24,833 nucleotides of DNA from a virus. Each line of letters starts with the position of its first letter. The stretch's first letter is position 1. Positions 9,014-20,205 of this stretch are shown here, one piece after another. The notes under the pieces are model-generated. The model was not told the origin of the DNA. It worked only from the letters and a program-made list of their open reading frames with translations, and did no database searches. The translations under genes were made by a program, and so were the position numbers. Where the stretch lies: positions 1-24,833 of the IMG/VR virus record IMGVR_UViG_3300029787_000309. The stretch is one strand, 5' to 3'.

Positions 9014-9385
9014 TCAACACCTCACGGGAATGTTTTTATGGATTATTTGTTTTATTTGATCCAGGCATTCAGTTAAACCCCCCTTGACTACAAAATGGGG
9101 TGTACCAAGTGCTTTTGATTGTACCGCCCACAACTTTTGATTATTGGACAATTTGCCCTTTTCGTTTTTAAGTTCAATATATAATAATTTCCCTGGAAAA
9201 TACTCAATTATAATATCTGGACAGCCAGGTTTTAAACCCATTCTTTTCATTTTAGCATGATAGGAAATAGACCTTTTACCTTCATTGGCAACATGGAAAT
9301 GTCTAAAATAATAAGTATTAGCTAAATAATTTAAATATTCATTACAAGCAATCTGAATTTCTGATTCTTTCGTCACAGGGGGCAT
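9014..9385 (-). CDS. VRR-NUC domain nuclease
   Basis: A 123-residue protein of the VRR-NUC family (PF08774), a PD-(D/E)XK-type endonuclease fold used in phages for replication, repair or host DNA attack, often as a stand-alone Holliday-junction or flap nuclease. Catalytic motif: G54-C-P56-D57, then E71-L-K73, followed by S80-N-N-Q83; the N-terminal ESEIQIACNEYL (about 7-18) is the usual first helix. It is the only reverse-strand gene in the window, converges with the late operon and diverges from the early region. The reverse-strand site AGGTGA lies close to the ATG. Confidence 0.88.
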   Translation of the reverse strand: MPPVTKESEIQIACNEYLNYLANTYYFRHFHVANEGKRSISYHAKMKRMGLKPGCPDIIIEYFPGKLLYIELKNEKGKLSNNQKLWAVQSKALGTPHFVVKGGLTECLDQIKQIIHKNIPVRC

Positions 9386-9519: not shown

Positions 9520-9553
9520 CTTTACCTTAAAAACCTAGCCTGTATGCTAGGTT
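9520..9553 (+). promoter_or_regulatory. Promoter/palindrome unit 1 (AACCTAGC hairpin)
   Basis: A -35-like TTTACC (9521-9526) and -10-like TATGCT (9543-9548) are separated by 16 bp. Overlapping them is an 8-bp perfect inverted repeat, AACCTAGC (9532-9539) and GCTAGGTT (9546-9553), around a 6-base centre. The same arrangement, box for box, recurs at 10401. A start near 9555 would leave a leader of about 25 bases with GGAGATC (9570-9576) before the ATG at 9580. The palindrome could be an operator over the -10 region, or an RNA hairpin if transcription starts upstream. Confidence 0.55.
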
Positions 9554-9579
9554 ATATAAACAAATCAATGGAGATCGAA

Positions 9580-9804
9580 ATGCAATTTAATATTAACGGT
9601 GTTATCAAATTTCAAAATGAAAAAGATTTTATTTCTTATTGTGAAAACAAGGGTTTTAAATATCTTGGCAAAGAAATGGGAACACATCTAAGAGAAGAGT
9701 TATTTCTTAAGCCTAAATTTTCAGAATTAAGTGGACCTTGTTTTGATGGCGAAAATTCAATTCGTTATGAAACATGGGATATTCAAGAAGTTTTATCAAG
9801 ATAA
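9580..9804 (+). CDS. Small early protein, function unknown
   Basis: A 74-residue protein starting MQFNINGVIKFQNEKDF. The ATG at 9580 is chosen because GGAGATC lies at 9570-9576. An in-frame ATG at 9517 would place the promoter palindrome inside the coding region and is rejected. The N-terminus suggests a beta hairpin (FNINGVIKFQN) and a helix; the C-terminus is acidic and aromatic (YETWDIQEVLSR). It is the first gene after the putative early promoter, a position typical of host-takeover proteins. No family recognised. Confidence 0.6.
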   Translation: MQFNINGVIKFQNEKDFISYCENKGFKYLGKEMGTHLREELFLKPKFSELSGPCFDGENSIRYETWDIQEVLSR

Positions 9805-9824
9805 TAAAAATGGAGATCAAGAAA

Positions 9825-10088
9825 ATGTTTTATAATGAAGTTACAAAAAAGCCTTATACTGGAAAGAATGTTGAGATATTAGCTTCTACTGGTTTAAAGG
9901 GTGGTTTTATGACATTCAAGCAAGCTTTATCGCTTGGATATTCTATACCGAAGGGTACTAAGACAGTTGCTAAATTGACAAGACCAATGATGGAAACTGT
10001 TGAAGACAAAAACGGTAAAGAAGAAGTTATGAGGTCTGGAAGAACTTTCCACGTATTTCATACTTCACAACTAGAGCAGAGTGCTTAA
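9825..10088 (+). CDS. Stand-alone ArdC-type N-terminal domain protein (antirestriction-like)
   Basis: An 87-residue protein corresponding to the ArdC N-terminal ssDNA-binding domain (PF08401). The matching pattern is PYTGKN (10-15), G-FMTFKQALSLG (about 27-38), IPKGTK (41-46) and FHVFHTSQ (75-82), compared with the family's PY.G.N / W.T..Q...G..V.KG...  / VFN..Q. The C-terminal metalloprotease part of full ArdC/TraC proteins is absent. ArdC-type proteins bind single-stranded DNA and protect entering DNA from restriction. The ATG at 9825 is chosen because GGAGATC lies at 9812-9818; longer readings are unsupported. A terminator overlaps its stop codon. Confidence 0.72.
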   Translation: MFYNEVTKKPYTGKNVEILASTGLKGGFMTFKQALSLGYSIPKGTKTVAKLTRPMMETVEDKNGKEEVMRSGRTFHVFHTSQLEQSA

Positions 10089-10105
10089 CGGCACTCTTTT
10101 TTTTT
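10078..10105 (+). terminator. Rho-independent terminator overlapping the ArdC-like stop
   Basis: AGAGTGC (10078-10084), loop TTAACG and GCACTCT (10091-10097) form a perfect stem followed by a run of T (10097-10105). The 5' arm contains the last codons and the loop contains the TAA of the ArdC-like gene. It closes a two-gene unit running from promoter unit 1. Confidence 0.85.
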
Positions 10106-10132
10106 AATAATAATAATAATAAGGAAAATAAA

Positions 10133-10396
10133 ATGAAATATATGTTTGAAAAAAAAATAAATGAAGTATGGACAAAATGGCTTAGAACAGAGTCATATTT
10201 TGGTCAATTTAAATTTGATGTTCACGAATGGTACTTTGATAGACCCCATACTCAAGATTATTCTATTGAAAGTTTTCTAATGAATTTTGAAGACCAGCTT
10301 GACGAAAGACAAAGAAATTTTGCAAATCATATGTTGCAAGTAATGGTTGAAATACAAAACCATGAGCATATTGGTAAAACTTTATTGAAAAAATAA
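10133..10396 (+). CDS. Hypothetical early protein
   Basis: An 87-residue, charged, aromatic protein (MKYMFEKKINEVWTKW; YFGQFKFDVHEWYFDRPH; C-terminal helix with FANHMLQVMVEIQN). The start has AAGGAAA at good spacing and follows an (AAT)n run after the terminator; no separate promoter is obvious, so it may be expressed by read-through. No family recognised. It is followed by promoter/palindrome unit 2. Confidence 0.65.
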   Translation: MKYMFEKKINEVWTKWLRTESYFGQFKFDVHEWYFDRPHTQDYSIESFLMNFEDQLDERQRNFANHMLQVMVEIQNHEHIGKTLLKK

Positions 10397-10400
10397 ATAA

Positions 10401-10436
10401 CTTTACTTTATGAACCTAGCATTTATGCTAGGTTTA
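10401..10436 (+). promoter_or_regulatory. Promoter/palindrome unit 2 (AACCTAGC hairpin)
   Basis: The -35-like TTTACT (10402-10407) and -10-like TATGCT (10424-10429) are 16 bp apart, with AACCTAGC (10413-10420) and GCTAGGTT (10427-10434) around ATTTAT. The distance from the CTTTAC box to the palindrome is 12 bases, identical to unit 1, while the loop and flanks differ. The stem can extend by a G-T and a T-A pair. An (AAT)n leader and GGAGATC (10461-10467) follow before the ATG at 10471. Conservation of boxes and arms with drift between them argues for function. Confidence 0.58.
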
Positions 10437-10470
10437 TAGACTTAATAATAATAATAATTTGGAGATCAAA

Positions 10471-10710
10471 ATGCAAAACTTACTAAGTTCACAACAATAC
10501 GAAAATTACCTCAAGAATTATATTCATAGATATATTGTAACTACCTTCAAAGGCAGAGGAAGGTACGATAAAGAATATTTTGAAAATATGGAATGTGCAA
10601 AAAAGTTCAAAGACTTTCAAATCAATATGGGCGAAAGAGCAGTTGTCTATGGTATTTCAAAGCCCCCTCATACAGTCCTGGAAGTTAATGTATTGATGGA
10701 GAATCTATAA
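10471..10710 (+). CDS. Hypothetical early protein
   Basis: A 79-residue basic protein (MQNLLSSQQYENYLKNYIHR; TTFKGRGRYDKEYF; C-terminal VLEVNVLMENL). The ATG at 10471 is set by GGAGATC at 10461-10467. The centre has a small basic GRGR loop that could touch nucleic acid. It is the first gene after promoter unit 2 and shares an A between its TAA and the next ATG. No family recognised. Confidence 0.62.
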   Translation: MQNLLSSQQYENYLKNYIHRYIVTTFKGRGRYDKEYFENMECAKKFKDFQINMGERAVVYGISKPPHTVLEVNVLMENL

Positions 10711-11625: not shown

Positions 11626-12093
11626 ATGGCTAATATAATAGATAAAATATACGATAATACTAAAGATGGAGTACCTAATTATTCTATTGATTTAATTGAT
11701 GGCACTAGATTGTATTTTAGAGGGGTTAGCATGAACCCATTACCCTCTCATGGTGATGCTATCAATTATACAGTTATCAACACTAAGACCTCTGCAAATG
11801 GCAATCAATACACTAATATAAAAGATGTATCAGTAGCTTATAATCCAGATGGACAAAATGATGCACCTAGTAATAATGCACCTCAAAGTTTAGGGAATGT
11901 TGTTAGTAATGTTGCACCAACACCACCACCACAAAATAATGGTTTTAGTAAAAGCGATAGTCAATCGCTGATGATTTTTGTCACAGGAATAGTAGGAAGG
12001 TCAATGCAATCAGGACATTTTTCAATAAACGATATTGAGCAACTTACTAAAAACGCAGTAAGGGCATTTGATGAAAACCTTAAAAAATTATAA
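11626..12093 (+). CDS. Putative OB-like N-domain protein with Pro-rich linker
   Basis: A 155-residue protein of three parts. Residues 1-70 are beta-rich (YSIDLIDGTRLYFRGVSM, then INYTVINTKTSANGNQYTNI), reminiscent of a small OB or SH3-like barrel. Residues about 71-107 form an Asn/Pro/Ser linker (APTPPPQNNG). Residues 108-155 form two helices (SQSLMIFVTGIVGRSMQSGH; INDIEQLTKNAVRAFDENL). This layout, next to nuclease genes, suggests a DNA-binding or single-strand-binding-like protein, but I recognise no specific family. The ribosome-binding site is AAGGA. Its end overlaps the HNH gene by 23 bases. Confidence 0.6.
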   Translation: MANIIDKIYDNTKDGVPNYSIDLIDGTRLYFRGVSMNPLPSHGDAINYTVINTKTSANGNQYTNIKDVSVAYNPDGQNDAPSNNAPQSLGNVVSNVAPTPPPQNNGFSKSDSQSLMIFVTGIVGRSMQSGHFSINDIEQLTKNAVRAFDENLKKL

Positions 12094-12451
12094 AAAGCTT
12101 TTTGCCGACTTTTGGGGATATCACGAAAATGATATTCCTAATTGTTGGAATTGTAATAAGGCTCAAGCAGTTGATATTCACCATATAATACCGAAGGGCA
12201 TGGGCGGAGTTAAAAATAATAGATTGAATAGGATAGACAATTTATTTCCACTTTGCAGAGTATGTCATAATAAAGCTCATTCAAATAAATCATTAAATGA
12301 AGATTTTAAAAAAATATTAATGGCTAAATTTAAATTGGATAGACAAGAAAAAATAGATTTTTGGATTAATTGTAGAATGTCAGTAAGTGAAGTTAAAAAA
12401 CAAATCATAAGGTTAGATGATAAATACAAGGAGTATGGCATAAATGTCTGA
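12071..12451 (+). CDS. HNH endonuclease
   Basis: A 126-residue HNH nuclease. It contains a structural zinc pair C25-x2-C28 and C62-x2-C65, the HH pair H37-H38 (in DIHHIIPKGMGG), N57 (in IDNLFPLC), and H66/H70 (CHNKAH), which together form the beta-beta-alpha-metal site. Such proteins nick or cut DNA; in phages they serve as recombination factors or homing endonucleases. Nothing shows an intron or an interrupted gene, so a recombination role with the nearby PD-(D/E)XK protein is equally possible. The ATG at 12071 is preferred to the TTG one codon earlier; AAGGG lies upstream. Confidence 0.85.
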   Translation: MKTLKNYKKLFADFWGYHENDIPNCWNCNKAQAVDIHHIIPKGMGGVKNNRLNRIDNLFPLCRVCHNKAHSNKSLNEDFKKILMAKFKLDRQEKIDFWINCRMSVSEVKKQIIRLDDKYKEYGINV

Positions 12452-12797
12452 TATTTACACAATAGAATTTGATCCTGCAAAACTTTCTTATCAACAAGAA
12501 TCCCTGGGATTAACTTTTGCTGATTTTGATACGGCAGTTGAATTGATGAAGAAAGAGGAAAAAATGATAATTGCTGAATTGACGATTTACTTTAGTAAAG
12601 AAGGCGGATACAAAAATATGACAGAATTAAATGGATTAATTTATTCTGATATAAAGTTTAGGGAGTTTTTTGATAGATACCAGAAAACCCTAAAAGAGAG
12701 GAATCAAGCCAAGATTAGGTTTGAAACCTTTAAGGCTTTCAGAGATGACCTAAGAACTAAGGTCGTTAATGAAAGGGAATTGGCAAAAAATTTTTAG
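12444..12797 (+). CDS. Hypothetical helical protein
   Basis: A 117-residue, mostly alpha-helical, charged protein (LTFADFDTAVELMKKEEKMI; FREFFDRYQKTLKERNQAKI; AFRDDLRTKVVNERELAKNF). It is likely a coiled-coil bundle. AAGGAG at 12428-12433 serves the ATG, which lies just before the stop of the HNH gene. Its place between HNH and PD-(D/E)XK genes suggests a replication or recombination accessory, but no family was recognised. Confidence 0.65.
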   Translation: MSDIYTIEFDPAKLSYQQESLGLTFADFDTAVELMKKEEKMIIAELTIYFSKEGGYKNMTELNGLIYSDIKFREFFDRYQKTLKERNQAKIRFETFKAFRDDLRTKVVNERELAKNF

Positions 12798-12809: not shown

Positions 12810-13052
12810 ATGTCAAATCAAGGAATTAATTTTAAATTAACACAAAACCAACAAATATTAGATTATCTTAAAGAGGGAAAAAGTATAAACCCACTTGAGG
12901 CTTTAAATTTATTTGGGTGCTTTAGATTAAGTGCCAGGATTCATAATTTAAGGCAAGACGGACATGATATAATAAAAAGAACAATCACATCAGATCATGG
13001 CGATAAACATTTTGCTGAATATACTCTTTTAAAATTAAAGGAGAAAAAATAA
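12810..13052 (+). CDS. Helix-turn-helix protein (HTH_39-like)
   Basis: An 80-residue DNA-binding protein. Residues about 10-60 (QNQQILDYLKEGKSINPLEA, LNLFGCFRLSARIHNLRQDG, then HDII) follow the winged-helix pattern of HTH_39 (PF14090): Q...IL.YL..G..I.P.EAL..FG..RL.ARI..LR..G. The end (HFAEYTLLK) supplies the wing strand. Such small phage proteins are thought to act as transcription regulators or replication accessories. It could be the protein that reads the AACCTAGC sites, but nothing direct links them. Ribosome-binding site AAAGGA. Confidence 0.78.
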   Translation: MSNQGINFKLTQNQQILDYLKEGKSINPLEALNLFGCFRLSARIHNLRQDGHDIIKRTITSDHGDKHFAEYTLLKLKEKK

Positions 13053-13285: not shown

Positions 13286-14076
13286 TAGAGCATTTTAAAA
13301 AGTTTGATGATTATGGAAAGGGTTTACTTCCATTGTCATTTAGTCATCTTAATGAATTTGCTTTTTATCGAGAAAGATGGGCATTAAGGCGAATATTTGG
13401 TTATAAGTTTCCTAGTAGTGCATCAGCAGAAAGGGGAAAAGCTGTTGAACAAGGATTAAATCTTATCTTAAGTTTTGGTATGTCATTTGAACAAGCTACT
13501 GAAATTATGTATGATGTTTATGATGATAATTGTTCTTATATCACAGACCCTAAAATTGAAGATGAGAGAAAAAACTTAATGCCATTATTTGAACTTGGAT
13601 TAAAACAGTTTCAAAAATATGCTTTTAGTTGGAAACTTTTAGAATATCAAAAAGAAGTTAAAGTTGAAATAGATGGTATACCATTCATAGGTTATACTGA
13701 TTTTTATTTTGAGGATAAAAACACCAAAGAAGATTTTTTTATTGATTTGAAAACATCTAAAATCTTACCCCAAAAAATAAGTATTTCCCATGCTATGCAA
13801 CAAGCTATTTATCAAAAAGCGACAAACTCAATTCAATGGTTGTGGTATCTCAAAAACCCTACAAAGACCAAAGATGCTGAATTTATTGCCATGTCATTAG
13901 ATGATTATTCAATGCCTATGAAGATATGCGAACATATTGTTAATGTTATGGGTAATTATTTAAAAACTGTTAATTCACCAGATGATGTTAAGAACTCTTT
14001 GATTCCAAACCCAGACAATTGGATATGGAAAGAACAAACAGTTTTAAATGCTAGAAAAGAAGTTTGGGGATATTAA
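13282..14076 (+). CDS. PD-(D/E)XK exonuclease (Cas4/RecB-like)
   Basis: A 264-residue nuclease of the PDDEXK_1/RecB-Cas4 superfamily. Motifs: RGKAVEQG (51-58, with E56 where many members have His), GYTDF (137-141, catalytic D140), IDLKTS (154-159, catalytic D155 and K157), then a QQAIYQ helix near 175. The N-terminal LSFSHLNEFAFYRERWALRR (18-37) is the usual lead-in. No Cys cluster typical of 4Fe-4S Cas4 is seen. Phage proteins of this type usually act as recombination exonucleases or degrade DNA during replication. It closes the replication/recombination gene string before the hairpin at 14083. Confidence 0.85.
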   Translation: MIEHFKKFDDYGKGLLPLSFSHLNEFAFYRERWALRRIFGYKFPSSASAERGKAVEQGLNLILSFGMSFEQATEIMYDVYDDNCSYITDPKIEDERKNLMPLFELGLKQFQKYAFSWKLLEYQKEVKVEIDGIPFIGYTDFYFEDKNTKEDFFIDLKTSKILPQKISISHAMQQAIYQKATNSIQWLWYLKNPTKTKDAEFIAMSLDDYSMPMKICEHIVNVMGNYLKTVNSPDDVKNSLIPNPDNWIWKEQTVLNARKEVWGY

Positions 14077-14082
14077 CCAATA

Positions 14083-14112
14083 AATCCCTTTAGGTTTTTG
14101 CCTAGAGGGGTT
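14083..14112 (+). promoter_or_regulatory. 12-bp hairpin in the leader of the DUF1376 gene
   Basis: AATCCCTTTAGG (14083-14094) and CCTAGAGGGGTT (14101-14112) form a 12-pair stem with two G-T wobbles around TTTTTG. There is no T-run after it, so it is a weak terminator at best. It lies seven bases after the nuclease stop and 14 bases before GGAGATC, so it may be an RNA processing or stability element, or an attenuator for the replication gene. Confidence 0.5.
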
Positions 14113-14135: not shown

Positions 14136-15020
14136 ATGAATTTAGAAAAAACAGAAGTAATTGACGAAAATTCGAAGCCTAAGGACAAATTAAAAGCCTG
14201 GTATCTTTTTACAGATGATTTTATTGCGGGTACTCAGCACCTCACAAATGAGCAAATAGGGATATATATTAGGCTACTTTGTTATAATTGGAATAAGAGA
14301 TGCAATGGTATACCATGCGATAGTATGACATACTATAGGATAGGTAGTTGTTTTACAGAAAGTGAAAAAGCAAGTTGTCATAAAATTTTAGAACAATTTT
14401 TTATCCAGGTTGGGGATCATTTCCAGAATGAAAGGCAACTCCAGGAATATTTATTTATTACTAAGAGAATTGATGCTTCTAAGAAAAATGGCAAGTTAGG
14501 TGGCAGACCTAAAAAACCTAGCATAGAACCTAGACTAGAACCTAGCACAAACCCCCCTACCACTACCCCTACCCCTACCACTACTAAAACCAAGAATAGT
14601 TATAATGCTCTTTTTAATACTTTTTGGGATAAGGTAGGAAATAAAGTAAGTAAGGGGATAGCAGAAAAGAATTATATAAAGTTAGATGAAGAATGGATTA
14701 ATAAACCGCAAGATTTAGCGATAATGTATAATAATTATTTTAATTCTGTAGCGGATAAACAATTTGTAAAGCAACCTGCTTTCTGGTTATCGGCTAAAAA
14801 ATATTTAGATGAAAATCCAAAAAATAAAAGTACTGATAAAATTGAACAATATGACATGAGATTAAAAATGTTTACGGAAGCGGTACAAAAGAAACAAGGT
14901 AGTGCATTTATTCAAAGTTATGCAAAGAAATATCCTTATGATGTTTCCAGGGCTATCCAGGAAGGGCATATAACAAAAGAAGATGCTAAAAAATATTTAG
15001 ATATGGAGAATTGGGTATGA
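14136..15020 (+). CDS. DUF1376 replication-initiator-like protein with AT-hook-like motif
   Basis: A 294-residue protein. Residues about 20-110 match DUF1376 (PF07120): KAWYLFTDDFIAGTQHLTNEQIG then IYIRLLCYNWNK, a winged-helix-like domain typical of phage replication initiation proteins. Residues 120-128 contain GGRPKKP, an AT-hook-like GRP core, followed by a Pro/Thr linker (about 128-155) encoded by tandem repeats. The C-terminal part contains FNTFWDKVGNKVSKGIAEKN and FWLSAKKYLDENP, like the C-terminal segment of lambda O-type proteins. The start at 14136 is set by GGAGATC at 14126-14132. It probably marks replication origin firing; no helicase or polymerase is in the window. Confidence 0.8.
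   Translation: MNLEKTEVIDENSKPKDKLKAWYLFTDDFIAGTQHLTNEQIGIYIRLLCYNWNKRCNGIPCDSMTYYRIGSCFTESEKASCHKILEQFFIQVGDHFQNERQLQEYLFITKRIDASKKNGKLGGRPKKPSIEPRLEPSTNPPTTTPTPTTTKTKNSYNALFNTFWDKVGNKVSKGIAEKNYIKLDEEWINKPQDLAIMYNNYFNSVADKQFVKQPAFWLSAKKYLDENPKNKSTDKIEQYDMRLKMFTEAVQKKQGSAFIQSYAKKYPYDVSRAIQEGHITKEDAKKYLDMENWV
14515..14550 (+). repeat. Three 12-bp iteron-like repeats inside the DUF1376 gene
   Basis: AACCTAGCATAG, AACCTAGACTAG and AACCTAGCACAA follow each other with a strict 12-bp period. The repeated AACCTAGC is the same octamer that forms the arms of promoter units 1 and 2. In lambda the replication origin is a set of iterons inside gene O, the same arrangement. The repeat also gives a four-residue peptide period ([KE]-P-[SR]-x), so protein-level selection could explain it. 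Confidence 0.55.
14558..14581 (+). repeat. Four TACC(A/C)C hexamer repeats
   Basis: TACCAC, TACCCC, TACCCC and TACCAC run in tandem directly after the iteron-like repeats, giving a pyrimidine-rich, C-rich top strand very unlike the AT-rich surroundings. They encode the Pro/Thr linker. The strand asymmetry would suit a single-stranded or structured region next to an origin, but may only reflect the linker. Confidence 0.5.
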
Positions 15021-18787: not shown

Positions 18788-20205
18788 TGAACAGGGAAAC
18801 ACTTACAAGCAAACATGATCTATGGCATTCAAATATAAGTAATTGGGAATTTTATATTCGCAGTTATTTAGGGGGTAATGATTACAAAAACGGATATTAC
18901 CTTCACAGATATATTTTAGAATCACCAGAAGATTATGACCAAAGAATAAGACATACCCCCCTGGATAATCATTGCAAAAATGTTGTTCAAATATATACAA
19001 GTTTTTTATGGAGAGTTTCACCGACTAGAGATTATGGTAGTTTAGATGGTGATGAACAATTAAGTTCATTCCTGGCAGATGCTGATTTAGATGGAAGATC
19101 ATTTAATACAGTTATGCGAGAGGTACAAATGAATGCGAGTATTTATGGGAATTGTTGGGTTATTATAGACAAACCACAATCAAATGCAAATACTAGAGCA
19201 GAAGAATTACAGCAAGATATTAGACCTTATATTTCAATATTAACTCCAGAAAATGTTGTGAATTGGAATTATTCAAGATCAACAAGTGGCAGATTTTATT
19301 TAGACATGTTGATGGTGATTGAGGATATAAATGAAGAAAGAGCAATAGTAAAAGTATTTACAGAGGAATCAATAAGCACTTATGAGGTCGAGGAATACAC
19401 AAAAGATTATGCAGAAGGGGATTATAAGCTATTAGAAGAAATACCTAACCCTTTGGGTAAAATACCAGCAGTAAATGTGTATAATCTTAGAGGAGCAAAA
19501 CGACCTATTGGCATTTCAGATTTGGCAGATGTAGCTTATTTACAGCAATCCATTTATAATGATTATTCAGAAAAAGAGCAGTTAATTAGACTAGCAAATC
19601 ACCCGAGTTTAGTTAAGACTCCTAATGTGGAAGCAAGTGCGGGAGCGGGTGCAATAATAGAAATACCAGAAGATTTAGATTCAGCTTTAAAGCCTTATAT
19701 TATTCAACCAAGCGGACAAAACCTAGATGGCATAATGAAATGTATTCAAAACAAAGTTGATGCAATCGACAGGATAACTCATATGGGAAGTGTAAGGGCA
19801 ACAGGCACACAAATAGCTAGTGGAATTGCATTACAAACAGAGTTTCAATTATTAAATGCTAGATTATCAGAAAAAGCAGATTATTTAGAAAATGCAGAAG
19901 AGCAAATATGGGGTTTGTTTGCTATGTGGCAAGATAAAGAATTTGATGGAAAAATAAATTATCCAGATACTTTTGACATAAGAGATTGGGCTAATGATTT
20001 ACAATATCTACAAATTGCTAAAGCAAGTGGCATTAAATCTGAAACTTTTAATAAGGAATTAGATAAGCAGATTGCTCAAGCAGTTATTGACGATAATGAA
20101 ATGATTAAAACAATAAATGAAGAAATAGATTCAACCAGGGCTGTAAGAGGTCAATTTCAGACAGTAGAAGTGGAAGGACAAACAGTTGGCGAGGAAGAAA
20201 CGTAA
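18787..20205 (+). CDS. Portal protein (DUF4055 type)
   Basis: A 472-residue portal, forming the 12-mer channel at one capsid vertex. The DUF4055 family (PF13264) pattern is seen in TPLDNHCKNVVQIYTSFLWR (about 58-77), DADLDGRSFNTVMREVQMNA then YGNCWVIIDKP, LSPENV-like LTPENVVNWNY, and HMGSVRATGTQIASGIALQTEF. The C-terminus is acidic. The start at 18787 is preferred because GGTGGAG lies directly upstream, inside the terminase end; the GTG at 18778 would translate that site. The last 20 bases are overlapped by the next small gene. Confidence 0.9.
   Translation: MNRETLTSKHDLWHSNISNWEFYIRSYLGGNDYKNGYYLHRYILESPEDYDQRIRHTPLDNHCKNVVQIYTSFLWRVSPTRDYGSLDGDEQLSSFLADADLDGRSFNTVMREVQMNASIYGNCWVIIDKPQSNANTRAEELQQDIRPYISILTPENVVNWNYSRSTSGRFYLDMLMVIEDINEERAIVKVFTEESISTYEVEEYTKDYAEGDYKLLEEIPNPLGKIPAVNVYNLRGAKRPIGISDLADVAYLQQSIYNDYSEKEQLIRLANHPSLVKTPNVEASAGAGAIIEIPEDLDSALKPYIIQPSGQNLDGIMKCIQNKVDAIDRITHMGSVRATGTQIASGIALQTEFQLLNARLSEKADYLENAEEQIWGLFAMWQDKEFDGKINYPDTFDIRDWANDLQYLQIAKASGIKSETFNKELDKQIAQAVIDDNEMIKTINEEIDSTRAVRGQFQTVEVEGQTVGEEET

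What the first reader, a model, noticed from the sequence alone, without database searches (positions are those of the whole stretch)
9520..10436. Two near-identical promoter/palindrome units in the early region
At 9520 and 10401 the same layout occurs: a CTTTAC box, exactly 12 bases to AACCTAGC, a six-base centre, GCTAGGTT, with the -10-like TATGCT at the same place (16-bp spacer). Centres and flanks differ while boxes and arms are conserved, which suggests selection. They are placed just before GGAGATC-led genes, and a terminator (10078) splits the two units. They may be early promoters whose -10 lies in the operator of a phage repressor or activator.
Basis: seen in the sequence. Interest (0 to 1): 0.66.

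Follow-up and report, generated by a model that had tools for sequence, protein, structure and literature searches.

The report
Early phage promoters with initiator-like operators
A marine virus related to phages of the ocean bacterium Pelagibacter has two early gene switches in which the promoter is overlaid by a mirror-image protein-binding site, and the same short DNA word is repeated inside its replication-starter gene, which suggests that the replication protein also turns the early genes off.

Summary
At 9520-9553 and 10401-10434 the window carries TTTACY-16 bp-TATGCT overlaid by the palindrome AACCTAGC-N6-GCTAGGTT (two exact copies; about 0.04 expected even with 3 mismatches).

It is a conserved module. 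IMG/VR scans found 62 + 28 contigs with TTGAC/TTTAC + AACCTAG-N8-CTAGGTT, nearly all from this marine phage family. All 11 family records over 24 kb have at least one AACCTA-N10-TAGGTT palindrome. The promoter slides along the palindrome but keeps 17 bp between -35 and -10 (d=6: 36 of 36 units; d=8: 18 of 18), sometimes as perfect TTGACA-17-TATAAT. These are two overlapping elements: promoter and operator.

The new point: the half-site AACCTA(G) is also repeated every 12/11 bp inside the phage's DUF1376 replication-protein gene, in two reading frames, with extreme codon bias (Leu CTA 56/56 against 109/720) and 29x background density. Likeliest reading: the replication initiator binds its own origin repeats and, as inverted repeats, shuts off early promoters, as plasmid Rep proteins do. 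No binding or transcription data exist; the binder is inferred.

The parts
9521..9526 (+). -35 box of unit 1, TTTACC
   Evidence: sequence; position matches TTGACA/TTTAC of relatives
9532..9553 (.). operator 1, AACCTAGC-CTGTAT-GCTAGGTT
   Evidence: conserved in relatives
9543..9548 (+). -10 box of unit 1, TATGCT, 16 bp from the -35, inside the right arm; predicted start near 9555
   Evidence: sequence; TANNNT at fixed spacing in relatives
9580..9804 (+). first early gene after unit 1, 75 aa with stop excluded, unknown function
   Evidence: relatives in L004-L007
9825..10088 (+). second early gene, ArdC N-terminal (anti-restriction) domain, 87 aa
   Evidence: Pfam PF08401 6e-08
10078..10105 (+). 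intrinsic terminator between the two units
   Evidence: fold z -2.9
10402..10407 (+). -35 box of unit 2, TTTACT
   Evidence: sequence
10413..10434 (.). operator 2, AACCTAGCAT-TT-ATGCTAGGTT
10424..10429 (+). -10 box of unit 2, TATGCT; predicted start near 10436
   Evidence: sequence
10471..10710 (+). first gene after unit 2, 79 aa, unknown function
14075..14096 (.). operator-like site just before the replication gene, AACCAA-N10-TAGGTT; perfect AACCTA-N10-TAGGTT in L074, L076, L090, L173, L189
14136..15020 (+). DUF1376 replication (primosomal/initiation) protein, 294 aa: proposed binder
   Evidence: Pfam PF07120 3.4e-10; PHROGs primosomal/replication initiation
14515..14546 (+). three AACCTAG direct repeats, 12-bp period, in the linker of the DUF1376 gene: proposed origin iterons
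12810..13052 (+). HTH_39 winged-helix protein, 80 aa: rival binder
   Evidence: Pfam PF14090 8.9e-18

Best explanation
The two units are early promoters for the host's main (sigma-70-type) RNA polymerase, each overlaid by a 22-bp dyad operator (AACCTAG-N8-CTAGGTT) that covers the end of the spacer, the -10 box and the start region. Early after infection the promoters are open and drive the early genes, including the replication operon. The phage's own replication initiator (DUF1376 protein, 14136-15020) recognises AACCTA. As direct repeats in the linker of its own gene these sites act as origin iterons; as inverted repeats at the promoters, and probably just upstream of its own gene, they let the protein block RNA polymerase. 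Supported by comparison: promoter, overlapping operator, and a shared half-site selected at the DNA level in the replication gene. Inferred: that one protein binds both, that it is the DUF1376 protein, and that the effect is repression. My confidence in promoter plus operator alone is about 0.9; the score below is for the full account.
For: Promoter: 70 distinct units; TANNNT lies exactly 17 bp after the -35 in 36/36 units with d=6 and 18/18 with d=8, so promoter and palindrome are separately constrained; perfect TTGACA-17-TATAAT in L088, L119, L130. Operator: arms conserved while centre and flanks vary; 90 contigs in scans by motif alone, nearly all one phage family; all 11 family records over 24 kb have one or two, reversed-pattern control zero; not found in marine alphaproteobacterial genomes. 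Shared half-site: AACCTAG repeated at 12/12 bp in the window gene; 91 observed against 30.7 expected, maximum 43 of 200 synonymous-codon shuffles; frame switch with an 11-bp step in L062-L071, L085, L093, L094; linker Leu codon CTA 56/56 against 109/720 and Ser AGC 77/82 against 38/462 in the N-domain; 41 distinct linkers; 29x background density in 45 nonredundant contigs and 4-7x just upstream of the gene. Binder: the protein matches primosomal/replication initiation families. The initiator-with-sites-in-its-own-gene layout is established for lambda O (PMC7466680) and pSK41 Rep (PMC5703833), and dimeric RepE of F binds inverted repeats at its own promoter (PMC13028717).
Against: No transcription start, footprint or binding data. 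The seventh base does not covary between iterons and operators. Several relatives have operators but only one AACCTAG in the gene (L072, L090, L091, L095-L098), so multiple iterons are not universal. The winged-helix model is confident in only one of five AlphaFold models and failed for the N-domain alone; structural matches to pSK41 Rep are at Z about 5, a middling level. Window -35/-10 boxes are weak matches to consensus. The codon and shuffle tests use related sequences, so their numbers overstate independence.
Confidence: 0.5

Rival explanations
1. The HTH_39 winged-helix protein (12810-13052) is the repressor of these promoters; the AACCTA repeats in the replication gene are either its additional sites or serve something else.
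For: It is a strong predicted DNA-binding protein, lies in the same early operon, and accompanies the palindromes in nearly all family contigs that reach it. The RLSARI stretch of its putative recognition helix is conserved.
Against: L009 and L172 share identical operators and mostly 85-100% identical early proteins (g13052 74%), but their HTH_39 proteins are only 49% identical; L004/L060 keep the window's operator with a 45% HTH_39 protein, whereas L008 has an 87% HTH_39 protein but altered operator arms. HTH_39 relatives in 36 other contigs come without the palindrome, though these are more distant.
Confidence: 0.2
2. An unrecognised phage protein or a host regulator binds the operators; the shared hexamer reflects that protein acting at both promoters and the replication gene.
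For: Several conserved early proteins have no annotation (12444-12797, 11626-12093). Binding has not been tested for any protein.
Against: A scan of 84,980 genomes for the TTGAC-type promoter-operator gave 7 unrelated hits, about the number expected by chance by my estimate, and none in marine alphaproteobacteria. The ParB-like protein and the 10880 gene have no match in many contigs that have operators.
Confidence: 0.2
3. The palindromes act only as RNA hairpins (terminator, processing site or attenuator) in read-through transcripts.
For: Both window copies fold well as RNA (-11.2 and -18.7 kcal/mol, z -3.6 and -6.3). L004 has a compensated change in both arms (CCCAGC/GCTGGG), which also fits a dyad protein site.
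Against: No T-tail follows, and the terminator scan lists only 10078 and a weak site at 9921. In L008 and L010 the upstream arm decays and folding falls near shuffle level (z -0.7, -1.5) while the -10 side stays intact. The fixed 17-bp relation to a -35 box is unexplained. A transcript from the promoter would start beyond the palindrome.
Confidence: 0.05
4. These are operators of a CI/Cro-like lysogeny or immunity repressor.
For: Dyad operators overlapping early promoters are typical of temperate phages (general knowledge).
Against: No integrase or CI-like protein was found among the window ORFs scanned; related isolates HTVC111P/112P/202P/026P lack the palindrome. The window lacks part of the genome, so absence is not proven.
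Confidence: 0.05

Closest known systems
F plasmid RepE and other iteron plasmid initiators (monomer on direct-repeat iterons, dimer on inverted repeats at the rep promoter; PMC13028717)
   Same: One short half-site used as direct repeats at the proposed origin and as inverted repeats at promoters; predicted autoregulation.
   Different: Here in a phage; the inverted repeats lie on early promoters about 4-5 kb upstream of the replication gene; 7-bp half-sites; the protein is of the DUF1376 family, not Rep_3; no binding shown.
pSK41 Rep (RepA_N), sites in the centre of the rep gene that encode the linker (PMC5703833)
   Same: Same gene layout: N-terminal DNA-binding domain (predicted here), linker encoded by the repeats, C-terminal domain. 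The AlphaFold N-domain gives Z about 5 to its structures.
   Different: No sequence homology detected; I know of no use of inverted copies at phage-like early promoters in pSK41.
Phage lambda O protein and ori-lambda in the O gene (PMC7466680)
   Same: Replication initiator of a tailed phage with (here proposed) iterons in the middle of its own gene.
   Different: Lambda iterons are 19-bp imperfect inverted repeats; here they are 7-bp direct repeats with 12-bp period, and the same word forms operators at early promoters.
Pelagibacter phages HTVC111P, HTVC112P, HTVC202P, HTVC026P
   Same: Closest isolated phages by terminase (57%); HTVC112P has a 30% DUF1376 relative.
   Different: They lack the palindrome.

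Membership tests
Sigma-70-type promoter | -35 and -10 hexamers 16-18 bp apart at a conserved position | tested here: met
   TANNNT at 17 bp in all d=6 and d=8 units; TTGACA-17-TATAAT in L088, L119, L130; window 16 bp with weaker boxes
Sigma-70-type promoter | Transcript starts about 7 bp after the -10 | not testable with these tools
   no RNA data
Dyad operator | Conserved symmetric arms, variable centre, overlapping a promoter | tested here: met
Dyad operator | Specific binding by a regulator | not testable with these tools
   no binding data
Iteron-type initiator with origin in its own gene | Helically phased direct repeats in the initiator gene, selected as DNA | tested here: met
   12/11-bp steps across a frame switch, codon bias, shuffles, density; single copy only in some relatives
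Iteron-type initiator with origin in its own gene | Winged-helix DNA-binding N-domain | tested here: inconclusive
   one confident AlphaFold model of five; N-domain alone failed; Z about 5
Iteron-type initiator with origin in its own gene | Replication starts at the repeats | not testable with these tools
   needs a replication assay
Plasmid-type Rep autoregulation | Inverted copies of the iteron half-site at a promoter of the initiator operon | tested here: met
   AACCTAG in both; operator-like site also directly upstream of the gene
Plasmid-type Rep autoregulation | Half-site bases covary between iterons and operators (expected if one protein reads both) | tested here: not met
   seventh base does not covary; only the core AACCTA is shared
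Plasmid-type Rep autoregulation | Monomer on iterons, dimer on operator | not testable with these tools
   needs purified protein
Lambda O-type iteron | 19-bp imperfect inverted repeat per iteron | tested here: not met
   repeats are AACCTAG direct repeats without dyad
Intrinsic terminator | G+C-rich hairpin followed by a T-run | tested here: not met
   no T-run after either palindrome; scan lists 10078 and a weak site at 9921 only

The most novel reading that the evidence does not exclude
In a large family of uncultured marine (Pelagibacter-phage-related) phages, the replication initiator is also the early-gene repressor. It reads one hexamer as direct repeats at the origin and as inverted repeats over early promoters, coupling the start of replication to early shut-off without a separate repressor.
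Probability: 0.45. Interest if true: 0.65.

Novelty: new variant of a known kind. Interest (0 to 1): 0.52.

Why it matters
Gene control in pelagiphages and similar uncultured marine phages is, as far as I found, not worked out (literature searches). If true, a single protein would couple origin firing to early shut-off in a phage, a plasmid-like strategy moved to early promoters. It gives a concrete, cheap test: one purified protein against three short DNA sites. The 22-bp motif is also a ready marker for early promoters in this phage family.

Tried and rejected
Literal '12-base gap' pattern: no match; the finding counts start to start. Exact unit with the window's spacing and 8-base arms over viral contigs: no hits, because spacing and the eighth base vary. 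Generic sigma-70 scan: does not list the two units. Covariation of the seventh base between iterons and operators: not seen. Pelagibacter phage isolates: no palindrome, and no comparable early palindrome that I could recognise. Motif hits L182/L193/L195 and L170/L175/L184/L186/L188/L194: not this family; where neighbouring genes were read (L182, L193, L175) the palindrome follows rather than precedes them; treated as coincidences. Host operator: 7 unrelated genome hits. N-domain-alone AlphaFold: low confidence, not used. ParB-like protein as binder: no match in many contigs with operators. A 14-bp-spaced AACCTAG pair in the portal gene: probably coding, left open. Literature searches found no description of this arrangement; the library is incomplete.

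Full report
What is there. The window is a 24,833-base fragment of an uncultured virus. Its terminase is 57% identical to those of Pelagibacter phages HTVC111P, HTVC112P, HTVC202P and HTVC026P, and its tail, holin, portal and capsid genes are those of a tailed phage. The early region starts after a nuclease gene on the minus strand (9014-9385). Two units lie in it: TTTACC-16-TATGCT with AACCTAGC-CTGTAT-GCTAGGTT (9521-9553), and TTTACT-16-TATGCT with AACCTAGC-ATTTAT-GCTAGGTT (10402-10434). The palindrome is far beyond chance. The terminator between the units is real.

Conservation. A protein of the first operon brought in four relatives, and the replication protein (14136-15020) brought in 45. 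Many of them carry AACCTAG-N8-CTAGGTT at the same kind of place. Scans of IMG/VR for TTGAC or TTTAC followed by the palindrome gave 62 and 28 contigs; most encode the same early genes. About a dozen contigs are not of this family and are set aside. All 11 family records longer than 24 kb have one or two perfect AACCTA-N10-TAGGTT sites, while the reversed control pattern has none and five isolated or named phages have none.

Promoter and operator are two elements. Among 70 distinct units, the distance (d) from the -35 box to the palindrome takes mainly two values. In each class TANNNT lies exactly 17 bp after the -35: 36 of 36 with d=6 (TATGCT, TAAGCT and similar, overlapping the right arm) and 18 of 18 with d=8 (TATAAT, TAATAT and similar, ending just before the arm). 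A third, small class places TAGGTT of the arm itself at the -10, which is automatic once the -35 sits there. L088, L119 and L130 have perfect TTGACA-17-TATAAT. The window has d=5, 16 bp and weaker boxes. A hairpin-only reading does not explain this; in L008 and L010 the upstream arm has decayed and RNA folding is near shuffle level, while the -10 side is intact.

The same word in the replication gene. The replication protein matches DUF1376 and phage primosomal/initiation families. Its linker carries three AACCTAG direct repeats 12 bp apart (14515, 14527, 14539). In relatives the AACCTA repeats number one to five, keep 12- or 11-bp steps in most linkers, and switch reading frame: (A)A CCT AG(N) for K/E-P-S/R and AAC CTA G for N-L-D, or AAC CTA A for N-L-N. 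Leucine in the linker is always CTA (56/56 against 109/720 in the N-domain) and serine nearly always AGC (77/82 against 38/462). Synonymous shuffles give 30.7 expected AACCTAG against 91 observed, at most 43. In 45 nonredundant contigs the linker bin has 29 times the background density of the hexamer; bins just upstream of the gene have 4 to 7 times, where AACC(A/T)A-N10-TAGGTT with operator geometry recurs (window 14075-14096). These counts use related phages, so they overstate independence; the frame switch is the strongest single argument for selection on DNA.

Which protein. The initiator is the natural candidate: lambda O and pSK41 Rep bind sites in the middle of their own genes (PMC7466680, PMC5703833), and RepE of F binds inverted repeats at its promoter (PMC13028717). 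The HTH_39 protein is the main rival. In L009 and L172 most other early proteins are 85-100% identical (g13052 74%) and both operators are identical, yet the HTH_39 proteins are 49% identical. L004/L060 and L008 show the same mismatch between HTH_39 and operator. A conserved motif in its putative recognition helix keeps this rival alive. The AlphaFold model of the initiator shows a winged-helix-like N-domain, but only one of five models is confident and the domain alone failed; a second look gives Z about 5 to pSK41 Rep structures, among unrelated winged helices. The seventh base of the half-site does not covary between repeats and operators, and several relatives with operators have only one copy in the gene.

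Mechanism. Shown by comparison: conserved promoter, overlapping operator, and a shared half-site in the replication gene that is selected as DNA. Repression rather than activation is favoured by the overlap with the core promoter and by consensus promoters in relatives. A host operator is unlikely from the genome scan.

Standing. I rate promoter plus operator at about 0.9, and the initiator as the binder and repressor at about 0.5. The kind of control is known from plasmids; its use at early promoters of a phage family would be a new variant. The literature library available here is incomplete, so prior description cannot be excluded.

Noticed in passing
window 12810-13052; L009 and L172: The HTH_39 gene exists as strongly different alleles (49% identical) between phages whose other early proteins are mostly 85-100% identical (g13052 74%), as if exchanged by recombination.
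   Followed up: partly
window 10441-10470 and most relatives: An AATAATAAT (TAA repeat) leader lies between the palindromic promoters and the GGAGATC/GGAGTTC ribosome site.
   Followed up: no
window 14548-14590: A C-rich ACCCCT/ACCACT tract follows the AACCTA repeats in the replication gene in nearly all relatives, possibly part of the origin.
   Followed up: no
window 14084-14107: A conserved hairpin (CCCTTTAGG ... CCTAGAGGG) without T-tail lies just before the replication gene.
   Followed up: no
window 19706-19726; L066 11158, L078 11643 and others: The portal gene of many relatives has two AACCTAG copies 14 bp apart in different frames (QPSGQNLDG); the window has one of the two.
   Followed up: partly
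window 9825-10088: A stand-alone 87-aa ArdC N-terminal (anti-restriction) domain is among the first early genes.
   Followed up: no
window 9014-9385; L167 856-1224: A VRR-NUC nuclease gene on the opposite strand borders the first palindromic promoter in the window, and a similar nuclease-like gene does so in L167.
   Followed up: partly
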